IMG/VR virus record: IMGVR_UViG_3300044954_000249
Span: 1 to 55,910 of that record
Strand: one strand, 5' to 3'
Length of the DNA: 55,910 bases
Source: a virus
Shown here in pieces: positions 8,782-32,166 of the stretch. The translations under genes and the position numbers were made by a program. The notes beneath the pieces are model-generated. The model searched no databases and was not told the origin of the DNA. It saw only the letters and a list, made by a program, of their open reading frames with translations. Within the stretch, counting starts at the first letter, position 1; each line of letters starts with the position of its first letter.

Positions 8782-10419
8782 ATGAGTAAAGTCCTTCATG
8801 TCAAAAAGCGGAACGGTCGCCTCGAAAACCTCAATATTAATAAAATAAATTTATGCGTAGAAAGAGCCTGCTCTGGATTAGAAAACGTTTCTGTTAGTGA
8901 GATCATCCTTGACGCTCATGTTCAGCTTTATGATAAGATTCCGACCGCTGAGATAGATAAGGCGCTCATCATGTCTGCGCGGACTAAGATTGAAAAGGAG
9001 CCCAATTATGCCCACGCCGCTTCTCGTCTTCTATTAGCCACTATTCTTAAGGAGGTTTTCGGAGAAAATTGCGATAGGGACGCTTTTGAGCATCAATATA
9101 AATCTTCTTTTATTAAAAGCATTAAGATGCTCGTTAAGGAAGAGGTTATTAATCCGAAACTTCTTGAATTTGATCTTAAGAAAATATCAGATGCAATTAA
9201 GCCAGACCGAGATTTAAAATTTAAATATCTTGGTTTGCAGATTGTATATGATCGTTATCTGCTTCATTTGAAGGGCCGTAGGCTTGAAACCCCGCAGGGA
9301 TTCTGGATGCGCGTAGCAATGGGTCTAGCTCTAAACGAGCAGAATAAAGAAGAAAAGGCAATCCAATTTTATGATGCCTTTTCTCAGTTTTTACTTTGCC
9401 CAAGTACTCCGACTCTTTTTAATAGCGGGACTATGCACAGCCAACTTAGTTCTTGCTATCTAAATACCTTCGATGATTCTATTGACGGAATTTTTGAAGG
9501 CTTGTGGCAGGAGGCTCGCAAATCTAAATTCGCTGGCGGTTTGGGCTTCGACGTGACTAATTTCCGTGCCGCAAATGCCTACGTTAAAGGGACCAACGGC
9601 AAATCCTCCGGCTTGATTCCGTGGCTTAAGATTTACAATGATACACTAATCGCAGTTGATCAGGGAGGTAAGAGGCCCGGGGCGGGATGCGCTTATCTTG
9701 AGACGTGGCATTTGGACCTAGAGGATTTTCTCGACTTAAAGAAGAATACCGGTGATGAGCGTCGCCGCTGTCACGATATGAATACAGCGAACTGGATTCC
9801 CGATCTTTTCATGCGTAGAATCCAAGAGGATGGAGACTGGTATCTTTTTTCTCCAAGCGACGTTAGAGATTTGCATGAGACCTATGGGGAAGATTTCGAT
9901 AATAGATATTTAGGTTATTGTAAGAAGGCTGAAGCTGGAGAGCTTCTCAATTTCAGGAAAGTCAAGGCGAAGGAGTTGTGGAAGAAAATGCTCCGCGTAC
10001 TATTTGAAACTGGGCATCCGTGGATAACTTTTAAAGATAACGCCAATTTAAGATATTCAAATTCCCACGAAGGAACGGTTCATAGTTCAAACCTGTGTCT
10101 AACTGGTGATACTCAAATATATGCCTTAGTTGATAAAATGCCAACCCACATAAGCCTAAGAGAGCTAAACGACCTATTCTCACTTAGCAAAGACATGAAA
10201 GTGTTGAGCTATAATGAAAAAGAGCAAGCTTATGAATACAAGAGTATATTAGCTTCGGCCCTGACCAAGAAAAATGCAGATTTGATTAAAATTACCGATT
10301 CTCAGACCGGTAAATCCATTAAGTGTACGCCCGAACATAAAGTTTTTACAAAAAATAGAGGCTACATCCAAGCTAAAGATCTAGCTCCTATGGATGAGCT
10401 AGAAATTCTGGATAACTGA
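8782..10419 (+). CDS. nrdA: Ribonucleotide reductase large subunit, N-terminal half, with N-half of a split intein
   Basis: 545 aa. Residues 1-90 are an ATP-cone (KRNGRLENLNINKI...ARTKIEKEPNYAHAASRLL), followed by the class I R1 barrel with SSCYLNTFDDSIDGIF (redox Cys), KFAGGLGFD and PWLKIYNDTLIAVDQGGKRPGAG. The N-extein stops after SSNL at residue 438; residue 439 onwards is intein (CLTGD...). The other half is the 10506-11726 gene. Splicing would rebuild an 811-aa R1 whose first C-extein residue is the catalytic thiyl-radical Cys of the N-L-C-x-E-I motif, so no active enzyme forms without trans-splicing. Co-operonic with nrdB. Confidence 0.93.
   Translation: MSKVLHVKKRNGRLENLNINKINLCVERACSGLENVSVSEIILDAHVQLYDKIPTAEIDKALIMSARTKIEKEPNYAHAASRLLLATILKEVFGENCDRDAFEHQYKSSFIKSIKMLVKEEVINPKLLEFDLKKISDAIKPDRDLKFKYLGLQIVYDRYLLHLKGRRLETPQGFWMRVAMGLALNEQNKEEKAIQFYDAFSQFLLCPSTPTLFNSGTMHSQLSSCYLNTFDDSIDGIFEGLWQEARKSKFAGGLGFDVTNFRAANAYVKGTNGKSSGLIPWLKIYNDTLIAVDQGGKRPGAGCAYLETWHLDLEDFLDLKKNTGDERRRCHDMNTANWIPDLFMRRIQEDGDWYLFSPSDVRDLHETYGEDFDNRYLGYCKKAEAGELLNFRKVKAKELWKKMLRVLFETGHPWITFKDNANLRYSNSHEGTVHSSNLCLTGDTQIYALVDKMPTHISLRELNDLFSLSKDMKVLSYNEKEQAYEYKSILASALTKKNADLIKITDSQTGKSIKCTPEHKVFTKNRGYIQAKDLAPMDELEILDN
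10096..10416 (+). other. N-terminal half of NrdA split intein, 107 aa
   Basis: Starts with block A (CLTGDTQIYALVD) and contains block B (KCTPEHKVF, with the T-x-x-H motif). The reading frame stops shortly after block B, the usual break point of split inteins. It strongly resembles, as I remember them, the NrdA-2 split inteins found in environmental phage sequences (N-half CLTGDAKID..., TPDHKVYTLNRGYVSAKDL). There is no endonuclease domain. Confidence 0.92.
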
Positions 10420-10505: not shown

Positions 10506-10604
10506 ATGCTGACAATTGAAAAGGTAAATTATCAAGAAGACGTGTTCGATATAACTGTGGAAGATAACCACAATTTTTTTGCAAATGATATATTGGTTCA
10601 TAAT
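10506..10604 (+). other. C-terminal half of NrdA split intein, 33 aa
   Basis: Contains block F (VFDITVEDNHNFFAND) and block G (ILVHN followed by Cys), with penultimate His and terminal Asn, all residues needed for splicing. Closely similar to the C-half of known NrdA-2 split inteins as recalled (VFDITVKDNSNFFANNILVHN). Confidence 0.92.
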
Positions 10605-11726
10605 TGCACGGAGATCTTTTTACATACTAAGCCTTCTAAATACGAAGAGGGAGAAAAAAAGGAAGTCGGAGAAGCGGCCGTTTGCAATCTCTCTTCGGTT
10701 AATCTTAAAGAACACCTCAAGAACGGGAAGCTGGATTATCCTCTGCTAGCTAAAACTATCGCTACTCAAATTAGGGCTCTTGATAGCGTAATAGATTTAA
10801 ATTTTTATCCGACAAAAGAAGCCGCAAATTCTAATCTAAAGCACCGCCCAGTCGGGGCTGGTTCAATGGGGTGGGCTGACGTTTTTCATGCCTACAAGAT
10901 AGATTTTTCTTCTGAAGAGGCCATTCAATTCTCTGACGAACTACAGGAATTTATTTCTTATCATTGTATTCTGAATTCCTGCGCTTTAGCTAAGGAAAAG
11001 GGAAAATACTCCACTTACAATAATTCTCTTTGGTCTAAGGGGGTCTTACCAATTGATACTTATAAGTCCTTGATGAATTATCTCAAGCAAGATCCAATAG
11101 AATTTAAATCAAATAAATTCTCTCCTAAAGTCGATTGGGACACGCTTCGCGCCTCTATCAAAGAGCATGGGGTTCGCAACAGCAACACGATGGCTATTGC
11201 CCCTACGGCTACCATCTCTTATATTCAGGGGTGCTCTCCATGTATAGAGCCAGACTTCTCTACTCTATTCGTTTACGAAAATAAGAGCGGCAATTTAATG
11301 ATTACAAATGAATGGTTCGTAAATGAATGTAAAGAATTGGGGATCTGGAACAAGTCATTAATTGAAATGATTAAATCTGTTGATGGAGACTTATCTCAAT
11401 TAAACGGTTATATACCGGACGACTTGAAGAAGCGTTACTGTACCGCTTTTGACAGAGACCAATTCAAACTCGTCGATGCTGCCGCAGCCAGACAAAAGTG
11501 GATTGATATGGGGCAAAGTTTGAATTTATTCAACTCTAACACGTCTCTTAAGTTTCTAAATGATTTGTATATTCACGCTCGTAATAGAGGATTGAAAGCT
11601 ACTTATTATCTGCGTAATAAATCAGCGAGCAAAATCGAAAAGTCGGTGACCAAAACGCCAGAAACAAACAATAGCGAACCAAAAGCGTGCAGCATCTTAA
11701 ATCCGGGCTGTGAATCTTGTCAATAA
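10506..11726 (+). CDS. nrdA: Ribonucleotide reductase large subunit, C-terminal half, with C-half of split intein
   Basis: 406 aa: residues 1-33 are the C-intein, then the C-extein begins with Cys34 (CTEIFLHTKP). The rest is the second half of class I R1: AAVCNLSSVNL (second active-site Cys), HRPVGAGSMGWAD, HGVRNSNTMAIAPTATISYI (phosphate-binding loop) and ARNRGLKATYYLRNK. It ends in a flexible tail with CESCQ, the redox Cys pair reduced by thioredoxin or glutaredoxin. It supplies dNDPs with NrdB. Expression of this half must match the N half for stoichiometric trans-splicing. Confidence 0.93.
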   Translation: MLTIEKVNYQEDVFDITVEDNHNFFANDILVHNCTEIFLHTKPSKYEEGEKKEVGEAAVCNLSSVNLKEHLKNGKLDYPLLAKTIATQIRALDSVIDLNFYPTKEAANSNLKHRPVGAGSMGWADVFHAYKIDFSSEEAIQFSDELQEFISYHCILNSCALAKEKGKYSTYNNSLWSKGVLPIDTYKSLMNYLKQDPIEFKSNKFSPKVDWDTLRASIKEHGVRNSNTMAIAPTATISYIQGCSPCIEPDFSTLFVYENKSGNLMITNEWFVNECKELGIWNKSLIEMIKSVDGDLSQLNGYIPDDLKKRYCTAFDRDQFKLVDAAAARQKWIDMGQSLNLFNSNTSLKFLNDLYIHARNRGLKATYYLRNKSASKIEKSVTKTPETNNSEPKACSILNPGCESCQ

Positions 11727-27531: not shown

Positions 27532-28287
27532 GTGGTTATTCCGCTATTTAAATCTCACTATTCAATTGGCAGAAGCATTCTTACTCTAGAGAAGGCTGGT
27601 TCCTCGGACGCAGAATCGCCCGCTTCAATTATTGATATTTGTACTGAATCAAAGATTAAGAATCTGTATCTTGTCGAAGATAACATGAGCGGATTTCTTG
27701 AGGCGTACTTAAATTCAAAAAGCTCCGACATTTCTCTCCGCTTCGGCTTGCGGCTAACTGTTTGCCCTAATCATCTGACCCAAGACGAAGACTCACTCTA
27801 TAGGCAAAGTAAATACATCATATTCGCAAATAATAAAGAGGGATATAGGCGATTGATTAAAATTTATAGCTTTTCAGCGAAGAACGGCTTCTATTATGAG
27901 CCAAGAATTGACTTTGATACATTGAAGACTCTATGGGACGATAAAGACTTATCCTTAGCTGTCCCATTCTATGATTCGTTTTTACATAAGAATTCTCTTT
28001 ATGGTTCAATCTGCTTGCCGGATTTTAGTTTTAGTAAGCCTACTTTCTTCGTAGAAGATAACGATTTACCGTTTGATCCAATACTCACTAAACTGGTAAA
28101 TGATTACGCTAACAAAAAATATGAGATCGTAAGGACGAAAAGCATTTTCTATAAAAACAGAAAAGACTTTAAATCGTATCTAACTTTTAAGTGCATTAAC
28201 AAAAGAACGACCTTAGATAAGCCAGAAATAGAGCATATGTGCAGCAACGAATTTTCTTTCGAGGGGTGGAAGGAGCAAAACGTTTAA
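27532..28287 (+). CDS. DNA polymerase III alpha, detached PHP domain
   Basis: 251 aa starting at GTG. LFKSHYSIGRSILTL (H-x-H-like PHP motif with one His left), IKNLYLVEDNMSGFLEAYL (equivalent of LTDHGNMFG) and FGLRLTV, then YIIFANNKEGYRRLIKIYS, are the order of the PHP domain at the N-terminus of DnaE. Several metal-binding histidines are replaced (D-N instead of D-H), suggesting a structural rather than phosphatase/proofreading role. The catalytic domain is encoded separately at 29164, so the alpha subunit is a non-covalent assembly. Confidence 0.82.
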   Translation: MVIPLFKSHYSIGRSILTLEKAGSSDAESPASIIDICTESKIKNLYLVEDNMSGFLEAYLNSKSSDISLRFGLRLTVCPNHLTQDEDSLYRQSKYIIFANNKEGYRRLIKIYSFSAKNGFYYEPRIDFDTLKTLWDDKDLSLAVPFYDSFLHKNSLYGSICLPDFSFSKPTFFVEDNDLPFDPILTKLVNDYANKKYEIVRTKSIFYKNRKDFKSYLTFKCINKRTTLDKPEIEHMCSNEFSFEGWKEQNV

Positions 28288-28288
28288 T

Positions 28289-28927
28289 ATGGACGAGCAT
28301 TTATTAAGATTCAATAAAGATAAAACCCTTGTCTTTTTTGATGCAGAAACGTTGAATTTGTGCTTAAATTCTTGCCATAATTTGCCTTGGCAGATTGGTA
28401 TGATTAAAGTGGCTGGAGATAAAAAAATAGATGAAAAGAATTTTTTTATTAAATGGAATACGGACTTAAAGATAAGTGAGGACGCCGCTAGAATTACCAA
28501 ATACGACCAAAAGAAGATAGACAGAGTTGGGGTGTCTCCCGAAGAAATATTCCCCACTGTTGAAGAGTGGTTAGATAAAGCTGATTATATCGTTGGCCAC
28601 AACGTCATAGCCTTTGACATTTATTTAATTCGTGATTTCTATAAATACATGAAAAAATCGGCTAAACATCTTTATAAAAAATTTATAGACACAAATGCAA
28701 TTGCCAAAGGGGTGAAGCTTGGTTTCCCTTTCAAAAATGGAGATGATTTACAAGAGTATCAATACAGAGCATATCACAGAAAGCAAAAGGGAATTAGAAC
28801 TAACCTTACGGCGTTAGGTAAGGAAATGTCCATCGATCATGATTATGATAATCTACATGATGCACTCGTTGATTTAGAGCTCAACTTAAAGGTTTGGAAT
28901 AAATTAAAATATCAAATCGAAATATAA
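28289..28927 (+). CDS. DnaQ-like 3'-5' exonuclease (DEDDh)
   Basis: 212 aa. Exo I motif VFFDAETLNL (Asp18, Glu20), Exo II VGHNVIAFDIYLI (Asp), and Exo III DNLHDALVDLELN (H-x4-D) give the DEDDh proofreading exonuclease. Encoded between the PHP and palm genes of the polymerase, one base after the PHP stop. Removes mismatched 3' ends for the phage replicase. Confidence 0.9.
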   Translation: MDEHLLRFNKDKTLVFFDAETLNLCLNSCHNLPWQIGMIKVAGDKKIDEKNFFIKWNTDLKISEDAARITKYDQKKIDRVGVSPEEIFPTVEEWLDKADYIVGHNVIAFDIYLIRDFYKYMKKSAKHLYKKFIDTNAIAKGVKLGFPFKNGDDLQEYQYRAYHRKQKGIRTNLTALGKEMSIDHDYDNLHDALVDLELNLKVWNKLKYQIEI

Positions 28928-28930
28928 TTT

Positions 28931-29167
28931 ATGGCTTCTCTTGACTTTGTAATAGATCTGCTGGAAAAAATAGAGTCTCAAAAAATGGGATATTATCTTC
29001 TAATCTCTCAAAGAGAAAAAAAGGGATATAAGTTTGATGCCTTTTATTCCCTTGATAGTGATTATGAAGTGGAAAATTTTGTGAAGGTGAACGACAAGGT
29101 GGTTAAAGATTTAAAAAAGAAGTACGGAATACGGGACACCAAGAAAAAAGGAAACAGAAAGAAATGA
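28931..29167 (+). CDS. Hypothetical protein, 78 aa
   Basis: Small basic protein (MASLDFVIDLLEKIESQK...) with an aromatic-rich middle and the Lys/Arg-rich end KKKGNRKK. Its stop overlaps the ATG of the polymerase palm gene (ATGA), so it is translated with it. No family; a replicase accessory role is only suggested by place. Confidence 0.65.
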   Translation: MASLDFVIDLLEKIESQKMGYYLLISQREKKGYKFDAFYSLDSDYEVENFVKVNDKVVKDLKKKYGIRDTKKKGNRKK

Positions 29168-30942
29168 ACTTTGTAGAAAAATTTTCCGATTATAAATTAG
29201 AAATCCACGGAGTTAGACTCCCCTCATTCGAGATCGAGAAGAAATATAAGCGAGCGATTGGTGTCAGTGAGGACGTTGACAACTACGAATTTCTTCGCGC
29301 CCTTTGCCTTAATGGGTTTAAGTCTCTAAATCTTGCTAAAGATACTCCTGAGTATAAAAAGTATGCCGAAAGAGTTAAATACGAATTAGAAATCATTAAA
29401 GAATTAGGCTTTATTGATTACATTCTCTTAGTATGGGATGTCATCAATTTTTGTAAAGAAAATGATATTCCAACTGGGTTTGGCAGAGGTAGTGCGGCGG
29501 GGAGCCTTATCCTTTTTCTTGTGGGCGTAACGAAAATCGATCCTATAAAATATGATTTGTATTTTGAAAGATTCATCTCTAAAAGTCGCGCCAAAAAACA
29601 AGTTGTAGATGGAGTAACTTACCTTGATGGATCGTTAATGTGCGATGTCGATTTAGATATATGCTATTATAGTCGCTACAAAGTTATTGAGTATCTCGAG
29701 CAGAAGTTTAAAGGAAGAACTGCCAAAGTCTTGACCCTCAATACATTAAGCGGTAAACTCTTAATGAAAGAGTGTGGCAAGATAATATCAAATAAACCAG
29801 AGTCAGAGATGAATGAAGTGTCAGCCCTAATCCCTAAAACATTCGGGCAAGTAAAAGACATTAAAGACGCCTACAAAGACGAAGGGAAGTTCAAAAGCTG
29901 GTGCGATAATAATAAAGAAATTTATAATATAGCACTCGGTCTCCGTGGTTTGATTAAGAATAAGGGCGTACACCCTTCTGCCGTGTTATTATCTTATGAT
30001 TTAATGGAAGATTCTTGTCCAACCGAATTAACATCAAGTAAGGACAGCGAAGTCTCTTCTTATGATATGAATTGGACAAGTGTATTCAATGTGAAATTGG
30101 ACTTACTTGGTCTTAGAAGCGTTTCAGTTGTTGATGACACATGTAAAAATATTGGCATAAAAATGTCGGATATCGATTTTAACGAACCATCGATATACCA
30201 AAACCTACAGGAACTCAAAAGTCCCCACGGTCTTTTCCAAATTGAAGCGGATACCAACTTTAAAGTATGCAATAAAGTAAAACCTAAGAATCTCGACGAA
30301 TTAAGCGCGGTTTTGGCGCTAGCGCGTCCCGGCGCGTTAGATTATGTTGATCAATACGCTCTATTCTCTAATACAAATACAATTCAGTCAATCCATCCAT
30401 TCTTTGACGATATTCTAAATAAGACTGGGGGAGTCGCTCTTTATCAGGAGCAAATGATGAAAATGGCCAATAAAATAGGGTTTACTCTTGATGAGGCGGA
30501 GATATTAAGAAGAATTGTAGGTAAGAAAAAGATTGAAGAAGTCAAGGCATGGAAAGAGAAAATCTCTCTCAAAATTAAAGAGAATAAATTACAACCAGAA
30601 ATAGGTGATATTCTTTGGAAAGTACTGGAGGATTCTGCAAATTACAGTTTCAACAGGTGTCTCTCGGAAGATACCGTTGTAGAAACGGATCATGGGAATA
30701 AAATGCTTTCTGAGGTGAAGAAGGGGGATAAAGTGTTAGCCTATTCTGTAAAAGACGAAAAAGATCATTACGTAGAAGTCCTTGATATTCATAAAAACCT
30801 TAAGGAACTATTCGAAGTAGAACTAGAAGACGGCAGGAAAATCAAATGCTCTATGGAGCATAAATTTTTATGTGAGGATAAGAAAATGAGGCCCCTCAAA
30901 GATATCATTTCTCAAAACCATAGCATTGTATGCAATTATTAA
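29164..30942 (+). CDS. dnaE: DNA polymerase III alpha catalytic (palm) half with N-half of split intein
   Basis: 592 aa. After a short linker (YAERVKYELEIIKELGFIDYILLVWDVI) come GFGRGSAAGSL (residues 106-114), the catalytic CDVDLDI (Asp163, Asp165), VLTLNTLSGK, KGVHPSAVLLS and LARPGALDYVDQYA, then YQEQMMKMANKIGF and LRRIVGKKK, i.e. the C-family palm, thumb and start of fingers. The N-extein ends NYSFNR at residue 498; an intein (CLSEDT...) follows. Function needs trans-splicing to the 30970 gene, giving an 858-aa core without PHP. Expressed after PHP and exonuclease. Confidence 0.92.
   Translation: MNFVEKFSDYKLEIHGVRLPSFEIEKKYKRAIGVSEDVDNYEFLRALCLNGFKSLNLAKDTPEYKKYAERVKYELEIIKELGFIDYILLVWDVINFCKENDIPTGFGRGSAAGSLILFLVGVTKIDPIKYDLYFERFISKSRAKKQVVDGVTYLDGSLMCDVDLDICYYSRYKVIEYLEQKFKGRTAKVLTLNTLSGKLLMKECGKIISNKPESEMNEVSALIPKTFGQVKDIKDAYKDEGKFKSWCDNNKEIYNIALGLRGLIKNKGVHPSAVLLSYDLMEDSCPTELTSSKDSEVSSYDMNWTSVFNVKLDLLGLRSVSVVDDTCKNIGIKMSDIDFNEPSIYQNLQELKSPHGLFQIEADTNFKVCNKVKPKNLDELSAVLALARPGALDYVDQYALFSNTNTIQSIHPFFDDILNKTGGVALYQEQMMKMANKIGFTLDEAEILRRIVGKKKIEEVKAWKEKISLKIKENKLQPEIGDILWKVLEDSANYSFNRCLSEDTVVETDHGNKMLSEVKKGDKVLAYSVKDEKDHYVEVLDIHKNLKELFEVELEDGRKIKCSMEHKFLCEDKKMRPLKDIISQNHSIVCNY
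30658..30939 (+). other. N-half of DnaE split intein, 94 aa
   Basis: Block A CLSEDTVVETDHGNKM and block B KIKCSMEHKFL (S-x-x-H), with the frame stopping about 24 residues after block B as in natural split inteins. Insertion lies between NYSFNR and SHSVAYS, three residues downstream of the classic cyanobacterial DnaE split site. Confidence 0.9.
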
Positions 30943-30969
30943 TGATGGAATATTTAAATAAGATTTAAA

Positions 30970-31083
30970 ATGCAAACTCTTAAAATTAAATCTATTACTC
31001 CAATAGGCATTAAGCCGACTTTGGATTTGGAGGTTAACCATCCAGATCATAATTTTTACGCTGAAGGAATCGTCACTTCTAAT
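30970..31083 (+). other. C-half of DnaE split intein, 38 aa
   Basis: Block F TLDLEVNHPDHNFYAEG and block G GIVTSN followed by Ser+1. The penultimate residue is Ser (not His), as in the cyanobacterial DnaE inteins (ASN-C). Terminal Asn and +1 Ser nucleophile are present, so splicing is chemically possible. Confidence 0.9.
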
Positions 31084-32166
31084 TCCCATAGCGTTGCTTA
31101 TTCAGCTTTGGCGGCCGCTACAATTTATCTTAAATTTAAACATCCTCAAAATTTCTTTTTATCTTTATTGAAAATGACGAGGCATGAGCCTGATCCGACC
31201 TCCGAAATATCTAAAATCCATAAAGAGATGGATTTGTTCTCTATTAAGTTGCTGCCTCCCCATTTGACTAAATCGAAAATAGATTTCTCCGCAGAGAATG
31301 AGAATATAAGATTTGGTCTCTTATCAATTAAGGGAATTTCAGAAAAGTCTATAGAAAAGATTAACAACTTCAGGAATGACTTCTCTAACAAATTTGAAAT
31401 ATTTAAAGCGGCAGAAGAAGCTGGTTTAAATATTGGCATTCTCTGTGCTCTAATTCAAGCTGGTACGCTAGAAGGATTTAAGCAGACTAGAAGCAGGGTT
31501 GTGCTAGAGGCTCAATTATGGCATGTCCTTTCTGAAAGAGAAAGAAAGCACGCAATGATGTTCGCCGAGCAAAAGGATTTCGATTTAGTTGAGATAATTA
31601 AATTCTTAAGGACCTTCAAGGACGAGAAGGGCAAGCCTATAATTAGAGACTCTCGTTATGAAACTATAAAGAAAAATTATCAGCCGTATCTTGAAATTTA
31701 CAATAAGAATAAAAGCTCAGAGAATTTCGCAAACTGGTATTACGAAAAAATGTTACTCGGATATACTTATAATAAAACATTAAAAGATATCTTTTCTGAG
31801 AAACGACCAGACTTATTATCTGTAAGAGAGATAAATCAACGCGCAAAAGGTGAAGAGGTAGTGTTCGTCGGGAGAGTCGAAGATTGCTATGAGGGCACGT
31901 CCAAAGAAAAGAAAACTAAATATTATAAGACTATCGCTTCTGATGAGACCGGCTCTATCAAGGTGATGATCTTCGGAGACAGAAAAGAAGAATGCAGCAA
32001 AATGAATAATGGCCTCCCAGAAGAAGGGAATATTGTGATAGTTAGAGGACGCAAGATGGATGAGGTAGTTTTTGCCGATATTATTGGAATTCAAGACAAT
32101 AAAGTCTATACAAAGTTGTCTGAAATTAAAAGAACCATAGAAAAAGAGAAAAATTTACAAAAATAA
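30970..32166 (+). CDS. dnaE: DNA polymerase III alpha C-terminal half (fingers, OB fold) with C-half of split intein
   Basis: 398 aa. Residues 1-38 are C-intein; the C-extein starts SHSVAYSALAAATIYLKFKHP, the conserved fingers motif of DnaE. The centre includes FGLLSIKGISEKSIEKI (helix-hairpin-helix), and EVVFVGRVEDCYEGTSKEKK...IKVMIFGDR is the C-terminal OB fold (ssDNA binding), with a tail NLQK. No beta-clamp motif is clear. Only 27 bases separate it from the N half; no promoter between them is visible, so translation coupling or re-initiation is assumed. Confidence 0.92.
   Translation: MQTLKIKSITPIGIKPTLDLEVNHPDHNFYAEGIVTSNSHSVAYSALAAATIYLKFKHPQNFFLSLLKMTRHEPDPTSEISKIHKEMDLFSIKLLPPHLTKSKIDFSAENENIRFGLLSIKGISEKSIEKINNFRNDFSNKFEIFKAAEEAGLNIGILCALIQAGTLEGFKQTRSRVVLEAQLWHVLSERERKHAMMFAEQKDFDLVEIIKFLRTFKDEKGKPIIRDSRYETIKKNYQPYLEIYNKNKSSENFANWYYEKMLLGYTYNKTLKDIFSEKRPDLLSVREINQRAKGEEVVFVGRVEDCYEGTSKEKKTKYYKTIASDETGSIKVMIFGDRKEECSKMNNGLPEEGNIVIVRGRKMDEVVFADIIGIQDNKVYTKLSEIKRTIEKEKNLQK

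What the first reader, a model, noticed from the sequence alone, without database searches (positions are those of the whole stretch)
29164..32166. Split intein in DNA polymerase III alpha at the SHS motif
The polymerase is encoded as two ORFs that end and begin in intein halves (94 and 38 residues) with blocks A, B, F and G intact, 27 bases apart. The extein junction NYSFNR|SHSVAYS places the intein three residues from the site of the cyanobacterial DnaE split intein and uses Ser+1 with a penultimate Ser. To my knowledge this is not the standard DnaE site; whether it is already described I cannot check.
Basis: partly seen in the sequence, partly recalled or inferred. Interest (0 to 1): 0.85.

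Follow-up and report, generated by a model that had tools for sequence, protein, structure and literature searches.

The report
Split intein in phage DNA polymerase
A virus of bacteria makes its DNA-copying enzyme as two separate pieces that very probably weld themselves together through a split intein, and the 27 bases between the pieces still carry the tail end of the mobile DNA-cutting gene that once sat there, a fossil of how such split genes arise.

Summary
In a 55.9-kb tailed-phage contig, DnaE (DNA polymerase III alpha) is encoded as 498 aa + 94-aa IntN (29164-30942) and 38-aa IntC + 360 aa (30970-32166), with three in-frame stops between the halves. All splicing residues are present. 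The halves read as one chain fold as a HINT domain (pLDDT 91.5), and selection on both is purifying. Ligation predicts 858 aa, exactly the length of the uninterrupted polymerase of the closest intein-less relative. The site (FNK|SHS) is four residues, not three, downstream of the cyanobacterial DnaE site. It is not unique: about 30 distinct phage loci carry an intein there, including contiguous ones in cultured Rhodococcus phages. The new insight is the origin. Relatives carry homing endonucleases of several families exactly between the halves ('fractured genes'); one 97%-identical pair differs by deletion of that gene. The window's 27-base gap, read in the +1 frame, still encodes the C-terminus of a Vsr-like endonuclease (INDGxFK*DLKCKLLKLN against INDGSFKEDLKCKLLELN). 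The split intein is therefore most likely a fractured gene that lost its endonuclease, kept because the polymerase depends on trans-splicing. New member of a known kind, with unusually complete evolutionary evidence. Splicing itself is inferred, not tested.

The parts
29164..30657 (+). N-extein of DnaE: palm (NTPase) and fingers, 498 aa, ends NYSFNR
   Evidence: Pfam DNA_pol3_alpha 2e-57 and DNA_pol3_finger 4e-32; 80% identical to uninterrupted DnaE of L001
30658..30942 (+). IntN, 94 aa (Cys1; SMEH as block B), plus TAA stop
   Evidence: TIGR01445 over cut-off; 83% aa identity to L060, dN 0.08 / dS 1.76
30943..30969 (+). 27-base gap with two further in-frame stops (TGA, TAA)
   Evidence: sequence
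30938..31006 (+). remnant of the 3' end of a Vsr-like homing-endonuclease gene in the +1 frame: INDGIFK*DLKCKLLKLNLLLQ*, overlapping the IntC start
   Evidence: matches the C-terminus of the free-standing endonuclease of L092 (INDGSFKEDLKCKLLELNII); the gap part alone beats all of 5000 dinucleotide shuffles
30970..31083 (+). IntC, 38 aa, with block F (DHNFY) and C-terminal Ser-Asn
   Evidence: 97% aa identity to L060, dN 0.011 / dS 0.58; HINT fold when read with IntN
31084..32166 (+). C-extein of DnaE, 360 aa, starts SHSVAYS (+1 Ser), includes helix-hairpin-helix
   Evidence: Pfam HHH_6 4e-15; 79% identical to L001
27532..28287 (+). PHP domain of the replicase as a separate gene
   Evidence: Pfam PHP 6e-10 and DnaE N-terminal models; separate in relatives of the clade with enough upstream sequence
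28289..28927 (+). DnaQ-like proofreading exonuclease gene
   Evidence: Pfam RNase_T 5e-13; conserved in relatives
28931..29167 (+). small ORF (78 aa) overlapping the dnaE start, function unknown
   Evidence: homologues at the same place in several relatives

Best explanation
This is a natural trans-splicing class-1 intein in a phage replicative DNA polymerase. The two ORFs are translated separately, probably from one message. IntN (94 aa) and IntC (38 aa) associate and fold into a HINT domain. Cys1 makes an N-S acyl shift, the Ser+1 of the C-extein attacks, Asn cyclises and the exteins are joined as ...NYSFNR-SHSVAYS..., giving an 858-residue DnaE that works with the separate PHP and exonuclease subunits. 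The split arose because a free-standing Vsr-like homing-endonuclease gene sat between the two intein halves. That gene was later lost by an internal deletion that left its last codons in the gap, while the intein halves were kept because an active polymerase needs them. Shown: anatomy, purifying selection, predicted fold, endonuclease remnant, and relatives in every intermediate state. Inferred: the splicing reaction itself, and the order of gain and loss in this lineage.
For: Sequence anatomy and domains. Read as one chain, with an alignment to contiguous inteins of the same site (63% and 59% identity), AlphaFold2 gives pLDDT 91.5, with confidence under 50 only at residues 96-102, the gap. 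Foldseek best hits are the inteins gp41-1, NpuDnaB, NrdJ-1 and NpuDnaE, E about 1e-9 to 1e-8. IntN and IntC are under purifying selection. The predicted product of 498+360 = 858 aa equals the 858-aa uninterrupted DnaE of L001. Same-site states in relatives: empty (L001, L003 and most); contiguous (L037/L061, L062); split with a Vsr-like endonuclease (L064, L065, L066, L070, L071, L092), with LAGLIDADG (L077), GIY-YIG on the other strand (L073), or HNH joined to IntN (L074, L090); split with the endonuclease deleted (L067, L081, L060, window). L066 and L067 are 97% identical on both sides of a deletion of about 670 bases that removes the endonuclease. Endonuclease remnant in the window gap: 0 of 5000 shuffles as good. 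Exteins of window and L060 nest among empty-site phages, while their inteins group with those of another subclade (AU p 0.04), consistent with horizontal arrival.
Against: No splicing was tested. The penultimate His is replaced by Ser (seen in other active inteins, from my own knowledge). IntN and IntC of the window lack the strong opposite charges that many natural split inteins have (-4 and -1). The tree incongruence is only marginally significant.
Confidence: 0.9

Rival explanations
1. A contiguous intein whose ORF was broken by sequencing or assembly error, so that splicing is really in cis.
For: Both ORFs are in the same frame; contiguous inteins exist at the same site (L061, L062).
Against: Three in-frame stops, and an independently assembled relative (L060) with the same architecture, its IntN stop being TAG instead of TAA; many further split relatives with whole genes in the gap.
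Confidence: 0.02
2. The split intein is a decaying remnant that no longer splices, and the polymerase works as two non-covalently joined pieces.
For: Phage replicases of this clade already tolerate separate PHP and exonuclease genes; L095 and L106 have DnaE broken at a second place without a recognisable intein.
Against: dN/dS of about 0.05 and 0.02 on the intein halves, nucleophiles intact in window and close relatives; decay would show first in the intein, which instead is better conserved than the C-extein.
Confidence: 0.06
3. The split arose by direct fission of a contiguous intein gene (point mutations making a stop and a start) with no endonuclease stage, and the +1-frame similarity to endonuclease tails is a by-product of the conserved IntC start.
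For: IntC residues are conserved, so the part of the remnant that overlaps IntC is not independent evidence.
Against: The gap part alone, which codes nothing else, matches (DGIFK*DLK; L060 DGTFKEDLK) and beats 5000 of 5000 shuffles; a matching tail occurs in L081 and a 233-base one in L067.
Confidence: 0.05

Closest known systems
Cyanobacterial DnaE split intein (Ssp/Npu DnaE)
   Same: Host gene, natural split at the canonical endonuclease position (about 100 + 36 aa), Cys1, HINT fold
   Different: Inserted four residues upstream (Y|CFN); +1 residue Cys; halves far apart in the chromosome (own knowledge) rather than 27 bases apart; about 19-27% identical
'Fractured genes' with split inteins and Vsr-like homing endonucleases (Dassa et al. 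2009, doi 10.1093/nar/gkp095; text not held, content known to me from memory)
   Same: Phage DNA-metabolism gene broken by a split intein with a free-standing Vsr-like endonuclease between the halves: what L064, L066, L070, L071 and L092 show
   Different: In the window the endonuclease has been deleted, leaving only its last codons; host gene is DnaE at FNK|SHS (I could not check whether this gene and site are in that paper)
Contiguous inteins in DnaE of Rhodococcus phages (Grayson, Francesca; by similarity also Peregrin, Weasels2, Trina, NiceHouse, Dorin)
   Same: Identical insertion site YSFNK|SHS
   Different: Contiguous (cis) arrangement, extra residues in the N-terminal part, penultimate His; the records name them only as DnaE, not as inteins
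gp41-1 split intein
   Same: Best structural match (E 1e-9); phage metagenomic origin and Ser+1 (own knowledge)
   Different: Different host gene (helicase), shorter, 29% identity

Membership tests
Class-1 intein (HINT) | Cys/Ser at position 1, block B T/SxxH, block F, C-terminal Asn, +1 Cys/Ser/Thr | tested here: met
   C1, SMEH, DHNFY, N, S+1
Class-1 intein (HINT) | HINT fold | tested here: met
   AlphaFold2 pLDDT 91.5; Foldseek to solved inteins, probability 1.00
Natural split intein | two separately translated ORFs, split at the canonical endonuclease position, each fused to one extein | tested here: met
   94/38 aa split, stops between, same in relatives
Natural split intein | trans-splicing activity | not testable with these tools
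   needs co-expression
Cyanobacterial DnaE split intein allele | insertion between Tyr and Cys of YCFNKSHS | tested here: not met
   inserted before SHS, four residues downstream
Fractured gene (split intein + free-standing endonuclease) | intact endonuclease ORF between the halves | tested here: not met
   only a C-terminal remnant in the window; intact in relatives L064, L066, L070, L092

The most novel reading that the evidence does not exclude
The DnaE FNK|SHS site in phages is a natural laboratory for how split inteins originate. Unrelated endonuclease families (Vsr-like, LAGLIDADG, GIY-YIG, HNH) have entered the same seam of the same intein, broken the gene and sometimes vanished, leaving stably split inteins such as the window's. 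Split inteins of this kind would then be locked-in fossils of endonuclease invasion rather than products of simple gene fission.
Probability: 0.65. Interest if true: 0.65.

Novelty: new member of a known kind. Interest (0 to 1): 0.52.

Why it matters
Where natural split inteins come from is mostly argued from isolated cases. Here one site shows empty, contiguous, endonuclease-carrying, endonuclease-deleted and remnant-bearing states in related phages, including a near-identical pair before and after deletion and, in the window, a readable footprint of the lost gene. It also adds a set of uncharacterised natural split inteins (94/38 aa, Cys1/Ser+1) with native junction FNR|SHS that could serve as ligation tools.

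Tried and rejected
Sequencing error or cis read-through: rejected (three stops; L060). Identity with the cyanobacterial site: rejected (four residues apart). Uniqueness of the site: rejected (about 30 loci). A cellular origin: one scan of bacterial genome contigs found only one intein-bearing hit, L081, in a Verrucomicrobiales bin, with the phage-type PHP-exonuclease-polymerase gene set and so probably a phage contig. The plasmid collection gave no DNA match. Charge asymmetry as support for a fast split intein: not found in the window. Literature: ten searches found no description of a split intein at this site, but the key paper (Dassa 2009) is not held, so prior description cannot be excluded.

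Full report
The observation. Window ORF 29164-30942 encodes the palm and fingers of DnaE followed by a 94-aa IntN; ORF 30970-32166 starts with a 38-aa IntC followed by the rest of DnaE. The two are in the same frame and separated by TAA TGA ... TAA. The junctions are NYSFNR|CLSEDT and GIVTSN|SHSVAYS. By alignment to E. coli DnaE the site lies between residues 758 and 759; the cyanobacterial intein lies between 754 and 755, so the offset is four residues, not three.

It is a working-type intein by every sequence test available. The splicing residues are intact. The nearest relative, L060, has the same 94/38 split and 27-base gap, with strong purifying selection on both halves (IntN dN 0.08, dS 1.76; IntC dN 0.011, dS 0.58). 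The read-through chain is 63% and 59% identical to contiguous inteins of the same site in L061 and L062 and is predicted as a HINT domain with pLDDT 91.5, the only stretch under 50 being the gap. Its best structural matches are gp41-1, NpuDnaB, NrdJ-1 and NpuDnaE. The ligated product would be 498 + 360 = 858 aa; the closest intein-less relative, L001, has an uninterrupted 858-aa DnaE at about 80% identity.

The site is a hot spot. A search with the polymerase found 56 viral loci, most with an empty site. Searches with the intein halves raised the number of distinct occupied loci to about 30. Contiguous forms: L061, L062, L080, L096, L104, L106, L118, and cultured Rhodococcus phages Grayson and Francesca. 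Split forms with a gene in the gap: Vsr-like endonucleases in L064, L065, L066, L070, L071, L091, L092, L095; LAGLIDADG in L077; GIY-YIG on the opposite strand in L073; NUMOD4-HNH joined to the IntN ORF in L074 and L090. The Vsr-like label rests on sub-threshold Pfam matches to Vsr and MTES_1575 (L095, L066), NUMOD3 motifs (L066, L092) and mutual similarity. Split forms without an intact gene in the gap: window, L060, L067, L069, L081 and L099.

The endonuclease was lost in the window. L066 and L067 are 97% identical on both sides of the place where the endonuclease of L066 has been deleted from L067, which keeps about 233 bases of its 3' part. In these loci the endonuclease ends a few codons inside the IntC gene, in the +1 frame. 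The same frame in L060 reads SDGTFKEDLKCKLLKLN and in the window INDGIFK*DLKCKLLKLN, against INDGSFKEDLKCKLLELN at the C-terminus of the L092 endonuclease. The gap-only part scored higher than all 5000 dinucleotide shuffles. The window's copy has since gained a stop. The window's split intein is therefore best read as a fractured gene that lost its endonuclease in an ancestor shared with L060.

Movement. In the extein tree window and L060 sit beside empty-site phages (L001, L003; supports 100/98 and 99/90), and L071 (occupied, with endonuclease) sits beside L101 (empty; 100/99). In the intein tree the window groups with L061, L062 and L065, and L069 with another group. Forcing the inteins of the mostly empty clade together is rejected only marginally (p 0.04). 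Horizontal arrival is likely, not proven.

Mechanism. Inferred from established intein chemistry: association of halves, N-S acyl shift at Cys1, transesterification to Ser+1, Asn cyclisation. Once the endonuclease has broken the gene, loss of either half would kill the replicase, which explains retention after the endonuclease is gone.

Novelty. The chemistry, split inteins and the fractured-gene organisation are known. A split intein at this DnaE site was not found in the papers held, but the central 2009 paper could not be read. The finding is best filed as a new member of a known kind with unusually complete evolutionary context.

Noticed in passing
window 8782-10419 and 10506-11726: A second split intein in the same phage, in ribonucleotide reductase NrdA (site SSNL|C, +1 Cys), with an 86-base gap between the halves.
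   Followed up: partly
L103:3831, L097:3861 (same contigs as L113, L116): Two DnaE split inteins at the same site appear to start with Thr (codon ACT), their relative L114 with Ser and L099 with Cys. I know of no characterised intein with Thr at position 1 (own knowledge).
   Followed up: partly
window 27532-32166 and relatives: The phage replicase is encoded as separate PHP, exonuclease and polymerase genes in that order across the clade; the order recalls PolC, where the exonuclease is inserted in the PHP domain (PMC3919608).
   Followed up: partly
L095:1008-4114, L106:3425-5138: An exonuclease gene sits between palm and fingers fragments of DnaE (L095), or just before the fingers fragment (L106), breaking the polymerase at a second place without a recognisable intein.
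   Followed up: no
Bacillus phage vB_BauM_KLEB27-3, L111:448-4818: DnaE is split after LFQIE by an HNH endonuclease ORF; no intein residues seen at the break, so a self-splicing intron or plain gene fission are possible.
   Followed up: no
Rhodococcus phages Grayson and Francesca (L107, L112): The DnaE annotation in the records does not mention an intein, although a contiguous intein is present at FNK|SHS.
   Followed up: yes
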